Positions 6,834-41,890 of a stretch of DNA of 41,890 bases are shown here, one piece after another. Under the pieces are notes generated by a model, which saw nothing but the letters and a program-made list of their open reading frames with translations, was not told the DNA's origin and made no database searches. The position numbers and the translations under genes were made by a program. The DNA is taken from contig JACUUX010000022.1 in the NCBI GenBank assembly GCA_014859105.1, positions 1-41,890 of the forward strand. The letters are read 5' to 3'. Position 1 is the first letter of the stretch, and each line of letters begins with the position of its first letter. This stretch comes from Nitrospirota bacterium. GTDB lineage: Bacteria > Nitrospirota > Thermodesulfovibrionia > Thermodesulfovibrionales > SM23-35.

Positions 6834-7394
6834 ATGCAGAATAGAAAAAGATTAAAACTTATTTTTCTGATATTGTTCTTAACGGCATTTATCTTTTATA
6901 TTGTTTATGAAGATTCTCCGGTTTCTTCCCAGCCTGAGAGCAATACACTGTTAGCTGTCGCTGAGGTACATGACGGAGATACAGTAAGTGTGATGCTCAA
7001 CAATAAAAAGGAGAAAGTGAGACTGATAGGAATAGATGCACCTGAAATAGGACAGAGACCCTGGGGTAAACGTGCAAAAAAATATCTGGAGAATATATTG
7101 AGTTCTTCAGGATGGAGAGTAAGACTGGAATTTGATGTTGAGCAAAGAGATAAATATGGTCGGGTCCTTGCTTATATGTGGACAAAAGATGGTAAAATGG
7201 CCAATCTCTTAATGGTTGAAAACGGATATGCAATGCTTTTTACAGTACCGCCAAATGTGAAATATACTAATGAGTTGAGGGTTGCACAGAACGAGGCAAG
7301 GAAAAAAGAGCTTGGAATATGGAGTAGAAAAGGTTTGAAGGAAAGGCCGAGTGATTATAGAAGAGAACACGAGAGACAAAATCTGATATACTAA
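6834..7394 (+). CDS. staphylococcal nuclease-like (thermonuclease) protein, membrane-anchored or secreted
   Basis: The 186-residue protein has an N-terminal hydrophobic segment (residues 8-24) after several lysines and arginines, which fits a signal peptide or anchor. The SNase OB-fold domain follows: VHDGDTVSV, then VRLIGIDAPEIGQRPWGKRA with catalytic Arg63 and Glu71, then DKYGRVLAYMW with the third catalytic arginine. It should cut DNA or RNA outside the cytoplasm in a calcium-dependent way. It is 5 bases upstream of the RNase J gene and is probably co-transcribed with it. Confidence 0.9.
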   Translation: MQNRKRLKLIFLILFLTAFIFYIVYEDSPVSSQPESNTLLAVAEVHDGDTVSVMLNNKKEKVRLIGIDAPEIGQRPWGKRAKKYLENILSSSGWRVRLEFDVEQRDKYGRVLAYMWTKDGKMANLLMVENGYAMLFTVPPNVKYTNELRVAQNEARKKELGIWSRKGLKERPSDYRREHERQNLIY

Positions 7395-7399
7395 AAACA

Positions 7400-9055
7400 G
7401 TGGAAAATACGTTATCTGTGATCCCCCTCGGTGGTGTTGAGGAGATAGGCCTCAACATGACAGTCGTTGAATACAATAATGATATTATCGTCATTGATGC
7501 AGGGCTGATGTTTCCGGAAGAAGACATGCTCGGAGTAGATTTTGTCATTCCTGACTTTTCTTATTTACTCGATAACAGAGAGAAAATAAAGGGTATAGTT
7601 CTTACCCATGGACATGAAGACCATACAGGCGCCCTCCCGTTTCTGCTCAGGGAGATGAATGCACCTGTGTATGGTACTCCACTGACTCTTGGACTCGTTA
7701 AGGAGAAACTACGCGAACATAATCTCGAACATACCGAACTTGTTTCTATCAAGCCCAGGGGAACCATAAATCTTGGAGTTTTCTCTGTAGAGTTTATAAG
7801 GGTGACTCACAGTATAGTTGATGGGGTAGGGTTAGGGATAACGACTCCCCTGGGTTTGGTAGTACATACAGGGGATTTCAAGCTTGACCCGACACCTGTT
7901 GACGGCCAGCTTATGGATTTTCTCAAGTTTTCAGAATATGGAGAAAGGGGTACACTTCTCCTTTTATCAGACAGTACAAATGCTGAAAAGGGCGGTTACA
8001 CTTTTTCAGAAAAAGAGGTAAGACGTGCTTTTGAGGATATATTCTCCAGGACGCAGGGGAGAATTATTATTGCAACATTTGCATCAAACATACACAGAAT
8101 CCAGCAGGCGATCGATGTAGCATTGAAATACGGTAGAAAGGTGATTTTATGCGGAAAGAGCATCGTATCGAATGCACAGATTGCACTTGATCTGGGATAT
8201 CTCAGAATACCTTATGATACCTGGCTCAGGTTAGAAGACATCGATAAACTTAAAGATAATGAGGTTGTAATCATAACAACCGGCAGTCAGGGCGAGCCGA
8301 TGAGTGTACTTTCAAGGATTGCAGCAGATGAACACAAACATATAAAGATTAAGGACGGAGATACTGTCATACTCTCGGCGAAAATGATACCCGGAAATGA
8401 ACGCTCAATAGGAAAGATTGTTAACCATCTCTTCAGGAGAGGTGCAAATGTAATATATGAAAAGGTATCCGAGGTTCACGTATCAGGGCATGCCTCAAAA
8501 GAAGAGCTCAAGCTAATGCTCAGTCTGGTCAAACCAAAATATTTTATGCCGGTTCACGGTGAATACAGGCACCTTGTTTATCATTCAATGCTTGCGAAGA
8601 AACTCGATATACCTCTGGAAAACATATTCATTCTTAGAAATGGCGAAATTCTCGAAATAACCGACAACGGGGCCAGAAAGAACGGGAGGGTAATTTCAGG
8701 ACGTATATATATAGACGGCAAGGGCATAGGAGATGTTGAAGAAATGGTTCTTCGTGACAGACTTAGGCTTGCACATGATGGAATCGTTTTGATAATTCTT
8801 GCAGTGGAGAAACTGACAGGGAATATTATATCAGGCCCAGAGATAATATCGAGGGGATTTGTTTTTGAAGATGCATCTCAGGAAGTAATTAATAATGTGA
8901 GAGACTTGTTGGCAGCCACAATAAATGAACTCGATAAAGATCTTATATCAGATACGTCATTGCTCAAAGCAAAGCTCAGAAGTACCTTAAAGAAATACCT
9001 CAGAAATACAATGGACAGAAAGCCCATGATCATGCCGATAGTCTTCGAGGTATGA
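7400..9055 (+). CDS. rnj: ribonuclease J
   Basis: RNase J is a metallo-beta-lactamase/beta-CASP nuclease with 5'-exonuclease and endonuclease activity in mRNA decay and rRNA maturation. The 551 residues match the family length. The metal motif HGHEDH spans residues 70-75. HTGDFKLDPTP, SDSTNAEKGGYT and PVHGEYRHL are the later conserved blocks, and the C-terminal domain is complete. The start codon is GTG. It follows the nuclease gene by 5 bases. Confidence 0.96.
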   Translation: MENTLSVIPLGGVEEIGLNMTVVEYNNDIIVIDAGLMFPEEDMLGVDFVIPDFSYLLDNREKIKGIVLTHGHEDHTGALPFLLREMNAPVYGTPLTLGLVKEKLREHNLEHTELVSIKPRGTINLGVFSVEFIRVTHSIVDGVGLGITTPLGLVVHTGDFKLDPTPVDGQLMDFLKFSEYGERGTLLLLSDSTNAEKGGYTFSEKEVRRAFEDIFSRTQGRIIIATFASNIHRIQQAIDVALKYGRKVILCGKSIVSNAQIALDLGYLRIPYDTWLRLEDIDKLKDNEVVIITTGSQGEPMSVLSRIAADEHKHIKIKDGDTVILSAKMIPGNERSIGKIVNHLFRRGANVIYEKVSEVHVSGHASKEELKLMLSLVKPKYFMPVHGEYRHLVYHSMLAKKLDIPLENIFILRNGEILEITDNGARKNGRVISGRIYIDGKGIGDVEEMVLRDRLRLAHDGIVLIILAVEKLTGNIISGPEIISRGFVFEDASQEVINNVRDLLAATINELDKDLISDTSLLKAKLRSTLKKYLRNTMDRKPMIMPIVFEV

Positions 9056-37347: not shown

Positions 37348-37409
37348 TGCCAGTTAAGAAGATACCCAGGCCTACTTCCGGAGGACTGATACTGTCCTAT
37401 AAATGCTGA
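37347..37409 (+). pseudogene. 20-codon remnant of a radical SAM protein
   Basis: ATG at 37347 overlaps the ispG stop (TAATG) and reads MPVKKIPRPTSGGLILSYKC, then TGA. This resembles the start of radical SAM proteins, in which RPTSGGLILSYKC is followed by N-x-x-C-x-x-C and the rest of the cluster motif. No matching sequence continues in any frame after it, so this is what is left after a deletion. Recognition is from the pattern only; a short real peptide cannot be excluded. Confidence 0.5.
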
Positions 37410-37444
37410 AATGCATTGATAGACTCAAGATTCGGAGGATGATG

Positions 37445-38068
37445 ATGCAGGGAGTCAAAACGATGCCTTATAGTGAAAAGTATGCGATTGTACTGGATAA
37501 AATTAAGCCTAACGATGTTCTCATCTCGCCTTTCATACAGAAGCATTTGGGCGAACAAGCATTAGTTGAACTCCAAAACATTTGGAAAGAAGGAGTTAAG
37601 CCAATTCCTGAAGACGCTTCAGATGAGGAGAAATACGAGATAGCTTACGGTAATCTTATGTGGCGGGGAAAGAGTAATTTGAAATTTATTCGTATGCACT
37701 TGGGTGAAGATGGTATTGAACAATACAAACTTGCACAGGTTGAAGAATTAAAGCGAAAAAACGCTAGTCCATCTCTGATAATGTTGGGATTACTGAGAGC
37801 GGTATCCCCAGGTTTCGCATTCATTATGACAGCCAAGAAGATGGCATATAATCTTCAGTGGATAAATCCATCCTCTTTGGTCGAGTTAACACGAAATAAA
37901 GCGGTGTTTAACATACCACGCTGTAAGGTAATAGGTTTTCCAGATATGGAGGAATCATGTATTGTAGATTGCCAGGGTGCTTATCCTATGTGGGTTGCTG
38001 AACAGTTTAAGGTTGGATTAAAATTTGAGCGTCAAGGGGATAGCTGTAACGCTATATTAACATTATAG
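37445..38068 (+). CDS. protein resembling L-2-amino-thiazoline-4-carboxylic acid hydrolase family
   Basis: From the ATG at 37445, which has GGAGG 6 bases upstream, the protein is 207 residues; an ATG at 37463 with GGGAG is also possible. I do not recognise it with certainty. The C-terminal part, CIVDCQGAYPMWVAEQFKVGLKFERQGDSCNAILTL, resembles the Cys- and Gly-containing end of the ATC-hydrolase family. A hydrophobic stretch (SPSLIMLGLLRAVSPGFAFIMTA) lies mid-protein but is too polar to be a firm membrane helix. It lies after ispG and the radical SAM remnant, and no partner suggests its job. Confidence 0.45.
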   Translation: MQGVKTMPYSEKYAIVLDKIKPNDVLISPFIQKHLGEQALVELQNIWKEGVKPIPEDASDEEKYEIAYGNLMWRGKSNLKFIRMHLGEDGIEQYKLAQVEELKRKNASPSLIMLGLLRAVSPGFAFIMTAKKMAYNLQWINPSSLVELTRNKAVFNIPRCKVIGFPDMEESCIVDCQGAYPMWVAEQFKVGLKFERQGDSCNAILTL

Positions 38069-38299: not shown

Positions 38300-38333
38300 C
38301 CCGCTTACTGAAATGAGTAGGCGGGCTTTTTTT
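38300..38333 (+). terminator. intrinsic terminator before the DGR
   Basis: CCCGCTTACT pairs with AGTAGGCGGG (one G-T wobble) around GAAATG, followed by C and seven Ts. It separates the ispG-side transcript from the DGR promoter that begins two bases later. Confidence 0.88.
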
Positions 38334-38334
38334 C

Positions 38335-38363
38335 TTTACATGCTCGGTGGTTTCCGTTATAAT
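38335..38363 (+). promoter_or_regulatory. sigma70-type promoter of the DGR
   Basis: TTTACA at 38335-38340 and a perfect TATAAT at 38358-38363 are separated by 17 bases. Transcription would start near 38370 and run through a leader of about 300 bases into avd, the first target, the RT and the second target. Confidence 0.8.
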
Positions 38364-38397
38364 AGCAAAAAGCTACTGATTCTTCGCGGGGGAAGAA

Positions 38398-38556
38398 GTG
38401 GGGGAAAATACAAAAAAGACATTTCTTTATCGTCTCAATGGTTTTTCTGTTAGCGGGAGTAGAATGTTTGGCATAATGATTGCTCAGTCAGTCAGTCAGT
38501 CAGTCAGTCAGTCAGTTTTTATATTATATAGCAGAAAAAGAAATATCAGACTTTGA
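38398..38556 (+). other. possible leader ORF containing the CAGT tract
   Basis: GTG at 38398, preceded by a purine-rich GGGGGAAGAA, opens a 52-codon frame that passes through the CAGT repeats (AQSVSQSVSQ) and stops at TGA 38554-38556, one base before the terminator-like hairpin. Loss of one CAGT unit would join it to the frame open to TAA at 38660-38662, 8 bases before the avd ATG. The overlapping +2 frame reads KRHFFIVSMVFLLAGVECLA before a stop, like a signal-peptide relic. Translation of any of these is unproven. Confidence 0.3.
38485..38516. repeat. tetranucleotide repeat (CAGT)8
   Basis: Eight perfect tandem copies of CAGT, 32 bases, lie in the DGR leader between promoter and avd. Tetranucleotide tracts of this length change copy number by polymerase slippage in other bacteria and cause phase variation. 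Confidence 0.95.
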
Positions 38557-38557
38557 A

Positions 38558-38593
38558 GGCATGGCGTTTAATGTAAAGCGCTATGCCTTTTTT
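38558..38593 (+). terminator. terminator-like hairpin in the DGR leader (possible attenuator)
   Basis: GGCATGGCG at 38558-38566 pairs with CGCTATGCC at 38579-38587 (one G-T wobble), followed directly by six Ts. It sits after the promoter and before avd, so transcripts may end here unless the hairpin is prevented from forming. Confidence 0.65.
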
Positions 38594-38617
38594 GTTCCTG
38601 CTCATAACGCCTCACAA

Positions 38618-38641
38618 CCCCCTCTTAATCTTAAGAGGGGG
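38618..38641. repeat. perfect 11-bp palindrome before avd
   Basis: CCCCCTCTTAA, TC, TTAAGAGGGGG. It is related in composition to the palindromic element inserted in rtcA. In RNA it would make a very stable hairpin about 30 bases before the avd start. Confidence 0.85.
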
Positions 38642-38670
38642 CGAGTGGGGGTTAATGCCTAAGGTTGAGG

Positions 38671-39039
38671 ATGGCGCGATATGAGCATCTGCCAATATAC
38701 AAGAAGGCTATCGATCTTGCCGTTTATATTGAAAATGTGGTCAGAGGCTTCTCGCGGTATCATAAGTACACGATCGGTGCCGACCTGCGGAACCTCTCCC
38801 GTGAGGCCATCAGGCTCATCATATCGGCAAATTCAAGGGAAGAAAAACTTAATACGCTGAGGTCTCTGAGAGATACAATCGAACAATTGAAGGTGACGAT
38901 CAGAATATGCAAGGAGGTGAAGGCATTCAGGAGCTTCAATTCCTTCCAGCAGGCTGCCGAGTGGGTAGTTGACCTTGGCAGACAGAGCGAGGGGTGGATC
39001 AGAAGCGTAAAACAGAAGAAGAGAGCAACAGTGCAATAG
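38671..39039 (+). CDS. avd: DGR accessory variability determinant (Avd)
   Basis: The 122-residue protein starts MARYEHLPIYKKAIDLAVYIENVVRGF and is all helical, ending in a basic tail. This matches Avd, the four-helix protein that forms a pentamer, binds the DGR reverse transcriptase and template RNA, and is needed for cDNA synthesis. Avd is related to the 23S rRNA intervening-sequence protein family, and such proteins start in the same way, but the neighbouring RT and variable proteins make Avd the right call. ATG at 38671 has AAGG upstream; a TTG at 38665 is possible. It is 19 bases before target 1. Confidence 0.88.
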   Translation: MARYEHLPIYKKAIDLAVYIENVVRGFSRYHKYTIGADLRNLSREAIRLIISANSREEKLNTLRSLRDTIEQLKVTIRICKEVKAFRSFNSFQQAAEWVVDLGRQSEGWIRSVKQKKRATVQ

Positions 39040-39058
39040 TCAATGTAGGAGGTCATAT

Positions 39059-39784
39059 ATGAGAACAACAATGGCATCATCGAGAAAATGTGAGTCTATC
39101 TTGTATGTCATGCCGAACTTGATCCGGCATCCGTTGTTTTTTTGGTTTGCCCGATCAGCAGGTCGGCCAATAATGAATTGTATAAATGTAAGCTCACTAT
39201 GGAGCTTTTGCATTGCTGTGGCGTTGCTGTGCTTTTGTCTTGTTGCCCCCTCCGATGCCTTCAAGCTCCCCGACACCGGCCAGACGAAGTGCTATCAGGG
39301 CGTATATCCGTATGCCGAAATCCCCTGCGAGGGGACAGGGCAGGATGGGGAGTACAACATCAATCCTCTTTCCTATACTGACAACGGCAACGGCACGGTA
39401 ACTGACAACAACACCGGCCTTATGTGGCAGGAGCAGGATAATGGCAACACTTACAACTGGTACAAGGCTTCCGGTACTTATGACGCTACATATAACCCGT
39501 CGTCAGAAAGCGTCTGCGGCTCTCTTACGCTCGGCGGCTTTTCAGACTGGCGCTTGCCGACAAAAAAGGAACTCATTACAATTGTTGACTACGGTATTCC
39601 GTATCCGGGTCCAACAATCAAAACGACTTACTTCCCGAATACAAAATCGTCCAACTATTGGTCGTCTACCACGTACGCCTACTATCCGGACTACGCGTGG
39701 GGCGTGGGCTTCTACAATGGCAGCGTCTACTACGGCTATAAGGACTACTACCTCTATGTGCGGTGCGTGCGGGGCGGACAGTGA
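39059..39784 (+). CDS. DGR target protein 1 (DUF1566/Lcl domain variable protein)
   Basis: The 241-residue protein has a hydrophobic segment around residues 46-66 (LWSFCIAVALLCFCLV) that should act as a signal peptide after an unusually long N-terminal extension. The DUF1566 domain follows: YTDNGNGTVTDNNTGLMWQ, FSDWRLPTKKELITI and YWSSTTYA. Its last 43 codons are the variable region. DUF1566 proteins of this type are known DGR targets with a C-type-lectin-like ligand fold, displayed outside the cytoplasm. ATG at 39059 has a perfect AGGAGG. The extension includes NLIRHP, encoded by a dispersed DNA repeat. The stop overlaps the RT start (GTGA). Confidence 0.9.
   Translation: MRTTMASSRKCESILYVMPNLIRHPLFFWFARSAGRPIMNCINVSSLWSFCIAVALLCFCLVAPSDAFKLPDTGQTKCYQGVYPYAEIPCEGTGQDGEYNINPLSYTDNGNGTVTDNNTGLMWQEQDNGNTYNWYKASGTYDATYNPSSESVCGSLTLGGFSDWRLPTKKELITIVDYGIPYPGPTIKTTYFPNTKSSNYWSSTTYAYYPDYAWGVGFYNGSVYYGYKDYYLYVRCVRGGQ
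39106..39135. repeat. half copy of the GTCATTCC-family repeat in target 1
   Basis: GTCATGCCGAACTTGATCCGGCATCC resembles the left half of the element at 9087 and forms a small hairpin (GCCG/CGGC). It is in frame inside the N-terminal extension of target 1, giving VMPNLIRHP. Confidence 0.65.
39653..39781 (+). other. variable region VR1 of the DGR
   Basis: These 43 codons at the end of target 1 align with VR2 (41571-41702). Over the first 25 codons the two differ at 12 bases, all at codon positions 1 or 2 of codons ending in C or T, and none at position 3. The last 27 bases (from TATGTGCGG to GGACAG) are identical and GC-rich, as expected for the initiation-of-mutagenic-homing site. Variable codons fit an AAC/AAT template changed at adenines. 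Confidence 0.9.
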
Positions 39785-39927
39785 TAGATTTCTTTGACAA
39801 CTTGATGATTTTTCTGGTAAACAGACAGAGCGGGAAAAGGTCGAAGAGCCGTCCTTCGAACAGGCCGGAATTGTTGATGCACCATGCATTGGCGAGTGAG
39901 CCTATGATCACTGTGCGCCCCGCACGC
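39765..39927. repeat. 21-nt inverted repeat spanning the RT start
   Basis: The sequence at 39765-39785 (GCGTGCGGGGCGGACAGTGAT) matches the reverse complement of 39907-39927 at 20 of 21 positions. The 5' arm holds the end of VR1, the GGGGCGG that could serve as Shine-Dalgarno, and the GTG start of the RT. The 3' arm encodes ITVRPAR within the RT. Confidence 0.85.
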
Positions 39928-41265
39928 CCTGTCTGCTTTGTAGCCAAACAGCCGAAACCGAGGGAGATATTTGCAGCCGATTTCAGGGACAGGGTGGTGC
40001 ATCATCTCCTTGTCCCGCATATTGAAAAGATATTCGAGCCCCAATTCATCCATGACTCCTATGCCTGCAGAAAGGACAAGGGTACCCATGCTGCTGTGAA
40101 ACGACTGAAGTATTTCATGAACCGCGTTACGAAGGGCGGCCATGTGGCTGCATGGTTCATGCAGCTTGATATCAGAAGTTTCTTTATGAGCATAGACAGG
40201 GAGATCCTTCTTGACATCCTTTTTCGACATTTACGTGATGACAGGCTGACTGCCCTTGCAAAAAAGGTCGTATTGCAGGACTGCACAAAAAACTTTGTAT
40301 ACAAGGGCGATCGCCGCCTCCTTCAGGGGATACCTCAGCATAAGTCTCTTTTTCATATTCCCGCAGGCAAGGGGCTGCCTATCGGAAATCTCACATCCCA
40401 GTTCTTCGGCAATGTCTATCTCAATGAGATGGACCAGTTTGTGAAGCATACGTTGAAGGTGCGGTATTACCTCCGGTATGTGGATGACTTTATCCTCCTT
40501 GATCCGGACAGGCAGCGGCTTATCGAACTAAAGGAGAAGATAGGCGAATTCCTGGATAAGCGGCTGGCCCTTTCGCTGAAAGAGGAGGCGACGCTCAGAC
40601 GAGTCTCTGAGGGCGCGGATTTTCTCGGCTACATCGTGAGGCCGGATTATGTCCTTGTGCGCAACAGGGTGGTCGGAAACCTCGGGGCAAGGCTCAGGAG
40701 CTTTCATGAAGAGATGGTCCAATATCCGAAGGTGAAAGAACAGCAATTTATCCGTATCCATCTTCGTGAAGAAAAAGTCCGGAAGCTCAGACAGACGCTT
40801 GCATCATACCTGGGACATTTCAAGCACGCTAATGCATACAGGCTGATACGCAGCCAGTTTGAGAAATACCGGTATCTGAAATATATCTTTGCCGTAGATG
40901 ACAAAGAGCGGCTTCTACCGATGTACGAGCCGCCGTTTGAGCCTGCAACGCTGCGGGGACAGTATACGTGGGTGGCTAAACAATACGGCGACCACTGCAT
41001 CTTTTTTCAGGTTGGAAGCTTCTGTGAGTTTTATGGCGCACAGGCAGAGCGCTACGGCCGGTTCTTTGGGCTTAAACCGCTGGCGGAAACGAGGATGTGC
41101 GCTACTCAGTGCGGGTTTCCGGTGCGGTATCTGAAAGACTTCAAGACAAAGACCTTTAGTGAAGGGATGCCGTATGTAGTTGTTTCTGAACGGGGCTATT
41201 ACCCTTCGGGTTTAAAGAAAAGAGTGATCTCGGAGATATTCAGAATGGAAAGGAGAAGAATATGA
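39781..41265 (+). CDS. DGR reverse transcriptase with C-terminal MutS-like domain
   Basis: This enzyme copies template RNA into adenine-mutated cDNA that replaces the variable regions. Starting at GTG (overlapping the target 1 stop as GTGA) it has 494 residues. Numbered from that GTG: KPREIFAADFRDRVVHH near 60, HDSYACRKDKGTHAA near 92, catalytic Asp in QLDIRSFFMSID near 130, the DGR-type GLPIGNLTSQFFGN at 198-211, and YVDD at 233-236. A thumb and linker follow. Residues about 393-470 resemble MutS domain I, with Phe-Cys-Glu in QVGSFCEFYG where MutS has its Phe-X-Glu mismatch probe. An ATG at 39877 is an alternative start that would still keep the RT core. Confidence 0.93.
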   Translation: MIDFFDNLMIFLVNRQSGKRSKSRPSNRPELLMHHALASEPMITVRPARPVCFVAKQPKPREIFAADFRDRVVHHLLVPHIEKIFEPQFIHDSYACRKDKGTHAAVKRLKYFMNRVTKGGHVAAWFMQLDIRSFFMSIDREILLDILFRHLRDDRLTALAKKVVLQDCTKNFVYKGDRRLLQGIPQHKSLFHIPAGKGLPIGNLTSQFFGNVYLNEMDQFVKHTLKVRYYLRYVDDFILLDPDRQRLIELKEKIGEFLDKRLALSLKEEATLRRVSEGADFLGYIVRPDYVLVRNRVVGNLGARLRSFHEEMVQYPKVKEQQFIRIHLREEKVRKLRQTLASYLGHFKHANAYRLIRSQFEKYRYLKYIFAVDDKERLLPMYEPPFEPATLRGQYTWVAKQYGDHCIFFQVGSFCEFYGAQAERYGRFFGLKPLAETRMCATQCGFPVRYLKDFKTKTFSEGMPYVVVSERGYYPSGLKKRVISEIFRMERRRI

Positions 41266-41843
41266 AGAGGAGGTTTATCTTATTGTTTGTGATGTCGGCA
41301 GCATTATTGTGCTCAACGGTGACAATGGCTGCGCCGTTTACGGACAATAAAAATGGAACAGTTACGGACAACAGGACCGGCCTTATATGGCAGCAGGGGG
41401 AACCGGGTTGGATGATATGGCCGTCCGCACTGGATTATTGCAATGGGCTTACACTCGGGGGCCACTCAGACTGGCGCCTGCCGAACATCAAGGAGCTCGA
41501 GTCCTTAACGGATGATGAAAGATACCATCCTGCGATAGATACCAATTTCTTTCCGAATGCTTATGCGTCCTACTATTGGTCGTCTACCACGTACGCCAGC
41601 GATCCGGGCTACGCGTGGATCGTGGTCTTCAGCTATGGCTGCGTCTACGGCTACTATAAGTACGACTCCTACTACTATGTGCGGTGCGTGCGGGGCGGAC
41701 AGTCTGGGTTATTTGGGAATTTAGAAGTTTCTCCTTCATCCCATGATTTTGGAGAGGTAGAGGTAGGAACATGTTCGTTAAATCCGCAGGTATTTGCTTT
41801 AGGTAATTTTGGCGATGGCGAAATCAATGTTTCGATGATATAA
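41262..41843 (+). CDS. DGR target protein 2 (DUF1566 domain), probably 3'-truncated
   Basis: The 193-residue protein has a clear signal peptide (MKRRFILLFVMSAALLCSTVTMAA). Its DUF1566 domain (FTDNKNGTVTDNRTGLIWQ, HSDWRLPNIKELESL, YYWSSTTYA) ends in variable region VR2 at residues about 104-147. Unlike target 1, the chain continues with LEVSPSSHDFGEVEVGTCSLNPQVF, the start of an immunoglobulin-like ASPM/choice-of-anchor domain, and stops early at about 40 residues. Such domains are normally about 90-100 residues, so the gene looks cut. The ATG overlaps the RT stop (ATGA) and has GGAG upstream. Confidence 0.87.
   Translation: MKRRFILLFVMSAALLCSTVTMAAPFTDNKNGTVTDNRTGLIWQQGEPGWMIWPSALDYCNGLTLGGHSDWRLPNIKELESLTDDERYHPAIDTNFFPNAYASYYWSSTTYASDPGYAWIVVFSYGCVYGYYKYDSYYYVRCVRGGQSGLFGNLEVSPSSHDFGEVEVGTCSLNPQVFALGNFGDGEINVSMI
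41571..41702 (+). other. variable region VR2 of the DGR
   Basis: These 44 codons align with VR1 but have one extra codon in the Tyr-rich stretch before TATGTGCGG. Changes sit in NNC/NNT codons (AGC, GAT, GGC, ATC, GTC, TGC, TCC). The GC-rich 3' end is identical to VR1. Here the protein continues after the variable region. Confidence 0.88.
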
Positions 41844-41845
41844 GA

Positions 41846-41890
41846 TGGAAAAAGTGGACACCAAAGTCAGATAAAATAAACTAAAGACGG
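41846..41890. mobile_element. possible left end of an insertion sequence
   Basis: After the premature end of target 2 the composition changes to GGAAAAAGTGGACACCAAAG followed by AT-rich DNA. GTGGACACC followed by a short AT-rich leader is seen at the ends of some IS3-type elements. No transposase is within the window, so this rests on pattern and on the truncation of target 2. Confidence 0.3.

What the first reader, a model, noticed from the sequence alone, without database searches (positions are those of the whole stretch)
38335..41843. Diversity-generating retroelement with two target genes on either side of the RT
The order is promoter, avd, target 1, RT, target 2, with gene junctions of 19 bases or overlapping stops and starts (GTGA, ATGA). 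Two DUF1566 proteins carry variable regions with the same GC-rich 3' end, so one RT can diversify two secreted proteins. Target 1 ends at its variable region. Target 2 carries it internally before an Ig-like domain. The window therefore encodes a complete protein set for a hypermutation system in a bacterial chromosome.
Basis: partly seen in the sequence, partly recalled or inferred. Interest (0 to 1): 0.9.

Follow-up and report, generated by a model that had tools for sequence, protein, structure and literature searches.

The report
Broken two-target diversity-generating retroelement
The window holds the remains of a bacterial gene-diversifying machine that clearly worked in the past on two secreted proteins, but a small deletion has removed its template and the front of its copying enzyme, and a jumping gene has cut off the second target.

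Summary
The described genes are real: avd, a DUF1566/Lcl_C target, a diversity-generating-retroelement (DGR) reverse transcriptase (RT), and a second Lcl_C target. The two variable regions (VRs) share an identical 3' end. They differ at 18 bases, all at codon positions 1 or 2, and only at codons that are Asn in a relative's template repeat (TR). One TR therefore wrote both VRs in the past.

The claim of a complete set fails. In 28 of 33 related loci the TR lies 0.24-0.57 kb upstream of the RT core. Here a ~0.54-kb deletion (junction 39925-39929) has removed the TR and about 51-54 N-terminal RT residues. No TR was found in the window or the assembled genome. Target 2 ends inside the terminal repeat of an IS3-like element, where the contig also ends.

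The locus is most likely a recently inactivated DGR. The RT carries a C-terminal MutS domain I, a known DGR accessory type (MSL) common to this RT clade.

A possibly new lead: the leader carries (TCAG)8. Short tandem repeats lie upstream of 11 of 82 DGR RTs with enough flank and are rarer elsewhere, which suggests slippage-controlled expression. This is untested.

The parts
38300..38325 (+). intrinsic terminator-like hairpin upstream of the operon promoter
   Evidence: 10-pair stem plus T run
38335..38363 (+). sigma-70-like promoter TTTACA-17-TATAAT
   Evidence: 11 of 12 consensus matches; consensus match only
38484..38515 (+). (TCAG)8 tandem repeat in the leader
   Evidence: perfect repeat, only one in its genome
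38555..38590 (+). terminator-like hairpin between the tandem repeat and avd (possible attenuator)
   Evidence: 15-pair stem plus T run; MFE z-score -6.0
38671..39039 (+). avd (accessory variability determinant)
   Evidence: Pfam bAvd 9.6e-15
39059..39784 (+). target 1, Lcl_C/DUF1566 protein
   Evidence: Pfam Lcl_C 9.8e-35
39656..39781 (+). VR1, at the very end of target 1
   Evidence: A-directed difference pattern against VR2 and the G249 TR
39785..39924 (+). former non-coding spacer downstream of target 1, now read as the first part of the RT frame
   Evidence: aligns with the G249 post-VR1 spacer; pLDDT below 50 over most of residues 1-50
39925..39929 (+). deletion junction (TR and RT N-terminus lost, ~0.54 kb in G249 coordinates)
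   Evidence: alignment switches from spacer to RT codons, 3-5 bases of microhomology
39763..41265 (+). RT open frame; true RT homology starts at about 39925
   Evidence: RVT_1 2.1e-16; top fold match 8ub7 DGR RT; N-terminus missing
40948..41247 (+). MutS_I (MSL) domain of the RT; Phe-x-Glu at 41020-41028
   Evidence: PF01624 1.1e-5; MutS 1ewq 4.7e-6; motif conserved
41262..41843 (+). target 2, Lcl_C/DUF1566 protein, truncated
   Evidence: Lcl_C 1.1e-36; last codons in an IS end
41574..41702 (+). VR2, internal in target 2
41836..41890 (+). end of an IS3-like element, running into the contig end
   Evidence: 98% identical to C1:2973-3027, shorter terminal matches on C93 and C82

Best explanation
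This is a chromosomal diversity-generating retroelement of the RT-MutS_I (MSL) clade that has been inactivated. In the ancestral layout (promoter, leader, avd, target 1 with VR1, TR, RT-MSL, target 2 with VR2), the RT with Avd copied the TR RNA into cDNA with errors at adenines, and that cDNA replaced VR1 and VR2, changing the binding face of two secreted C-type-lectin-like (DUF1566) proteins. That such mutagenesis happened here is shown by the VR1/VR2 pattern. In this genome a ~0.54-kb deletion between the sequence downstream of target 1 and codon ~52-55 of the RT gene removed the TR and the RT N-terminal segment, and an IS3-like insertion truncated target 2. As assembled, the locus cannot retrohome in cis: there is no template to copy, and the RT lacks a segment conserved from this clade to BPP-1. 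Shown: gene identities, VR mutation pattern, deletion relative to homologs, IS end. Inferred: loss of function, order of events, secretion of the targets.
For: Domain hits. VRs differ by 18 bases at codon positions 1/2/3 = 9/9/0 against 45/41/61 upstream (Fisher p 1.6e-4). All 12 differing codons are Asn in the G249 TR, none of 24 non-Asn codons differs (p 1.7e-6). G249 has avd-T1-TR-RT-T2 with the TR in place. The alignment switches at 39925-39929. The N-terminal block LFSFENLYxxYxKCRRNKR...YxPSR is present in seven clade relatives and aligns with BPP-1 bRT, but is absent here. TR 235-574 bp before the RT core in 28 of 33 MSL-RT loci, no TR/VR pair detected here. No TR, no RT N-terminus and no second DGR RT found elsewhere in the genome; the only other RT hit is an RT-Cas1. 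IS end.
Against: The RT frame is open for 500 codons with dN/dS 0.11 against G249, so the loss is recent or the protein still has some use. The genome is in 148 contigs, so absence of a TR is not proof, and the deletion has not been seen in reads. A TR could act in trans from sequence missing from the assembly.
Confidence: 0.78

Rival explanations
1. The DGR is intact and active in the living population; the assembled contig joins or represents a minority deleted form, or is misassembled, and the TR lies in unassembled reads.
For: DGR loci hold near-repeats and are hard to assemble; RT frame open with dN/dS 0.11; VR1 and VR2 are identical at every third codon position, so the TR was present recently; the contig ends nearby in an IS copy.
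Against: The junction lies at 3-5 bases of microhomology outside the VR/TR repeats, which simple repeat collapse does not produce; no TR, RT N-terminus or other leftover piece elsewhere in the assembly.
Confidence: 0.14
2. The locus works in trans: its VRs are still diversified by an RT and TR elsewhere, or the truncated RT uses a remote TR, as reported for incomplete DGR loci in Thiohalocapsa PB-PSB1.
For: Trans diversification of incomplete loci is reported (PMC10907252); avd, VRs and most of the RT are kept.
Against: The RT search of the genome found no second DGR RT, only an RT-Cas1; no TR; the RT lacks its N-terminus.
Confidence: 0.05
3. The truncated RT has been put to another use, for example as a DNA-binding or repair-modulating protein through its MutS_I domain, with a new start built from spacer DNA.
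For: Frame kept open from a GTG that overlaps the target 1 stop; MutS_I Phe-x-Glu motif intact.
Against: The new N-terminal part is predicted disordered; the dN/dS against G249 mostly reflects time before the deletion; nothing shows selection since.
Confidence: 0.03

Closest known systems
DGR of relative G249, contig C53 (same class as the window's genome), and homologous loci in Candidatus Magnetobacterium casense MYR-1, Candidatus Magnetomicrobium cryptolimnococcus and a Nitrospinota MAG
   Same: avd, Lcl_C targets before and/or after the RT, RT fused to MutS_I; RT identity 75% (G249) and 62% in the best segment (Nitrospinota)
   Different: They keep the TR in front of the RT and the RT N-terminus; the window has lost both, and its target 2 is cut by an IS
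BPP-1 DGR (Bordetella phage; mtd-avd-TR-brt)
   Same: RT fold (8ub7 is the top hit), avd, VR with GC-rich end, TR just before the RT in the ancestral layout
   Different: Phage tail target, one target, no MutS_I domain on the RT; intact TR and RT N-terminus
MSL (MutS-like, PF01624) DGR accessory protein, attributed to reference 12 of PMC10053308
   Same: Same Pfam domain in a DGR context
   Different: Here and in its relatives it is the C-terminal domain of the RT itself; the primary source was not held, so I could not check whether fusion was described there

Membership tests
Diversity-generating retroelement | RT of the DGR class | tested here: met
   RVT_1; IGNLTSQ motif; best sequence and fold match 8ub7
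Diversity-generating retroelement | RT complete, including the conserved N-terminal segment | tested here: not met
   about 51-54 residues missing against seven relatives and BPP-1
Diversity-generating retroelement | template repeat (TR) near the RT | tested here: not met
   none in window or assembled genome; present in 28 of 33 related loci
Diversity-generating retroelement | variable repeat(s) differing from the TR only at adenines | tested here: met
   tested VR1 against VR2 and against a relative's TR: 18/18 differences at codon positions 1-2, 12/12 differing codons at TR Asn; the own TR is not available
Diversity-generating retroelement | Avd or other accessory protein | tested here: met
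   bAvd 9.6e-15
Diversity-generating retroelement | short-loop hairpin/cruciform downstream of VR (required in BPP-1, PMC3240598) | tested here: not met
   no inverted repeat of 7 or more bases within 30 bases in the ~100 bases after either VR; I do not treat this as universal in the family
Diversity-generating retroelement | observed VR variation in a population | not testable with these tools
   no reads, and no second genome of this genus among the relatives listed
MSL (MutS domain I) DGR accessory | MutS domain I with the Phe-x-Glu mismatch-recognition motif | tested here: met
   PF01624 1.1e-5, 1ewq 4.7e-6, motif aligned with MutS GDFYE; Glu in 25 of 26
Phase-variable (tandem-repeat-controlled) locus | repeat copy number varies and changes expression | tested here: inconclusive
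   paralogous M. casense leaders carry GCAA x13, x3 and about x1; no strain comparison or expression data for this locus

The most novel reading that the evidence does not exclude
DGR operons in many environmental bacteria are under slippage control: short tandem repeats (4-8 base units, 4-20 copies) in the leader before the first gene switch or tune the diversifying machine and its surface targets, so that stochastic phase variation and templated hypermutation are stacked on the same genes.
Probability: 0.3. Interest if true: 0.6.

Novelty: new member of a known kind. Interest (0 to 1): 0.35.

Why it matters
As a DGR it is a further, now disabled, member of a known kind and a clear case of DGR decay: TR and RT front lost in one event, second target cut by an IS. 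A second lineage (L086, Desulfobacteraceae) also lacks the same two parts. The comparison brought out two points a specialist may use. Fusion of the DGR RT to a MutS mismatch-binding domain is shared by a clade spread over many phyla, with the mismatch-recognition motif conserved. And short tandem repeats are over-represented upstream of DGR RTs, which, if they control expression, would make DGR activity itself a phase-variable trait.

Tried and rejected
TR search by VR1 and by the G249 TR in the whole genome, by the shared 20-mer in the window (3 mismatches) and by the VR 3' 21-mer in IMG/VR (0 hits): none.

VR1 x TR homologous recombination as the cause of the deletion: rejected, because the sequence after VR1 matches the post-VR1 spacer of G249 and not the post-TR RT codons.

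RT N-terminus elsewhere in the genome: none found. A second DGR RT in the genome: the only other RT hit is an RT-Cas1. Other Lcl_C genes (C51, C97) as remote targets: no match to the VR 3' end there.

Phages and plasmids: RTs below 60% identity only, no close copy. The genus search around M. casense gave no strain-level comparison of the same leader, only paralogs and weaker matches.

RT-MutS_I fusion as a new discovery: rejected, since MSL (PF01624) is already named as a DGR accessory. One dN/dS value for the MutS_I region alone was computed out of frame and is discarded.
Full report
What is there. The window is the whole of contig C85 of a 148-contig, 3.16-Mb genome. Its order includes genomes that match Candidatus Magnetobacterium casense and Candidatus Magnetomicrobium (contig lengths agree), so it most likely belongs to the Nitrospirota. 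At its right end lie avd (38671-39039), an Lcl_C/DUF1566 target (39059-39784), an RT frame (39763-41265) and a second Lcl_C target (41262-41843). Pfam supports each: bAvd 9.6e-15, Lcl_C 9.8e-35 and 1.1e-36, RVT_1 2.1e-16. It also finds a MutS_I domain at the RT C-terminus, 1.1e-5.

The variable regions record real DGR activity. Over 42 aligned VR codons (39656-39781, 41574-41702) the two targets differ at 18 bases: 9 at first, 9 at second and 0 at third codon positions. Over the 104 homologous codons upstream they differ at 45/41/61 (Fisher p 1.6e-4). The nearest relative (G249, same class, RT 75% identical) has a TR with runs of AAC/AAT codons. All 12 codons that differ between the window's VRs in that alignment are Asn in the TR, and none of the 24 non-Asn codons differs (p 1.7e-6). 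The VRs thus derive from one kind of TR by mutation at adenines. VR2 is one codon longer, inside an AAC run, perhaps from slippage during copying.

The template and the RT N-terminus are gone. I searched for TRs with a script that looks for near-repeats whose mismatches fall on A in one copy. It found the TR 235-574 bp upstream of the RT core in 28 of 33 distinct MSL-RT loci from many phyla (27 as the best hit, plus L111), with VRs on one or both sides of the RT. It found nothing in the window. The own genome has no TR either (queries VR1, and G249 TR). Aligning the window to G249 shows why. Window 39758-39929 matches the spacer downstream of target 1. From 39925 onwards it matches the RT gene at the codons for SVCFVAKQPK. 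About 0.54 kb (G249 coordinates) has been deleted, with 3-5 bases of microhomology. The lost piece contained the TR and about 51-54 RT residues, LFSFENLYxxYxKCRRNKR...YxPSR. These are present in seven clade relatives and align with the N-terminus of BPP-1 bRT. An HMM of this block finds it in most full-length relatives and not in the window. A search of the own genome with the G249 segment found nothing. The ~55 residues that now precede the RT core come from former non-coding DNA, and most of residues 1-50 have pLDDT below 50 while the rest of the model is confident.

Target 2 is also damaged. The last 55 bases of the contig are the end of an IS3-like element: 98% identical to C1:2973-3027, where a frame beginning MKGIPQGRYTKEFREEAVKMV follows, read here (by eye, not by a family search) as the start of an IS3-type transposase. 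Shorter terminal matches occur on C93 and C82. The element starts at about 41836, so the final codons and stop of target 2 belong to the IS. The 'Ig-like domain' is a 49-aa stub without a significant hit. In G249, target 2 continues into carboxypeptidase-regulatory-like and hydrolase-like domains.

Mechanism and state. Ancestrally this worked as other DGRs do (established for BPP-1; PMC3240598): TR RNA is copied by RT-Avd with errors at A, and the cDNA replaces the VR, here in two probably secreted lectin-like proteins. As assembled, the locus has neither template nor full RT, so it should be inactive in cis. The RT core has no stop codon and dN/dS 0.11 to G249, so the loss is recent or the protein retains some use. 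Trans supply is known in Thiohalocapsa (PMC10907252), but no TR or second DGR RT was found in this genome; the only other RT hit is an RT-Cas1. An assembly error cannot be excluded without reads. The microhomology junction outside the repeats makes a simple repeat collapse unlikely.

The MutS domain. The RT C-terminus matches T. aquaticus MutS domain I (4.7e-6). The mismatch-binding Phe-x-Glu is conserved (aromatic in 25 and Glu in 25 of 26 fused RTs). The fusion is common to this clade, from Nitrospirota and Nitrospinota to Desulfobacterota, Proteobacteria, Planctomycetota, Acidobacteria and others. PF01624 'MSL' is already listed as a DGR accessory (PMC10053308). What it does is not known to me; shielding mismatched cDNA/VR intermediates from host repair is a testable guess.

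The leader. Between promoter and avd lie (TCAG)8 (38484-38515) and a strong terminator-like hairpin (38555-38590, z -6.0). Among 92 distinct DGR loci chosen only by RT similarity, 12 perfect tandem repeats (unit 4-9 searched, at least 4 copies) fall in the 4 kb upstream of the RT core (270 kb), and 3 in the other 568 kb (binomial p 2e-4). Eleven of the 82 loci with more than 0.9 kb upstream have one. Most sit about 70-240 bp before the first operon gene, and the units are largely unrelated. The window's repeat, which prompted the test, is one of the 92. A 400-kb control from the own genome gave three 7-mers of 4-5 copies, and the TCAG repeat is unique in its genome. In M. casense the same leader with a GCAA repeat (x13 at the DGR) recurs elsewhere, in part before genes for secreted proteins, with x3 or about x1 copies. 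The device is therefore not exclusive to DGRs, and its copy number varies among paralogs. I found no paper linking DGRs with phase variation beyond general reviews.

Verdict. It is a new member of a known kind. The leader repeats are the one lead that may be new.

Noticed in passing
window 38484-38515: (TCAG)8 repeat in the avd leader; mostly unrelated 4-8 base repeats lie upstream of the first gene in about a dozen other DGR operons (L057, L058, L059, L062, L078, L088, L099, L118, L133, L153, L156), which hints at slippage-controlled expression.
   Followed up: partly
window 38555-38590: Strong intrinsic-terminator-like hairpin between the tandem repeat and avd; G249 has a weaker hairpin in the same place. 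Possible attenuator coupled to the repeat.
   Followed up: partly
L059 12687-12738, L186 about 1604, L190, L193 about 1431 (M. casense): One leader with a GCAA repeat recurs with x13, x3 and about x1 copies; an ACTT x7 repeat takes its place in another copy.
   Followed up: partly
L086 1400-2750 (Desulfobacteraceae MAG): A second DGR that lacks a detectable TR and the RT N-terminus, with sequence resuming at about the same RT codons as in the window.
   Followed up: partly
L057 RT gene, minus strand, 7015-9006: The G249 RT carries in-frame insertions of a dispersed repeat (SLPKRG...PLNPLSRG, TPTLSPKGRG) inside the coding region, reminiscent of protein-coding palindromic elements.
   Followed up: no
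window 39765-39785 and 39907-39927: 21-base inverted repeat (95%) between the VR1 end and the sequence just left of the deletion junction; it may have favoured the deletion, or be chance.
   Followed up: no
L024 (G000:C115:12999-13592): RT-Cas1 fusion (709-aa open frame) in the same genome, presumably an RT-linked CRISPR system.
   Followed up: no
window 37403-38068: 221-aa protein just upstream of the operon with no Pfam match.
   Followed up: no
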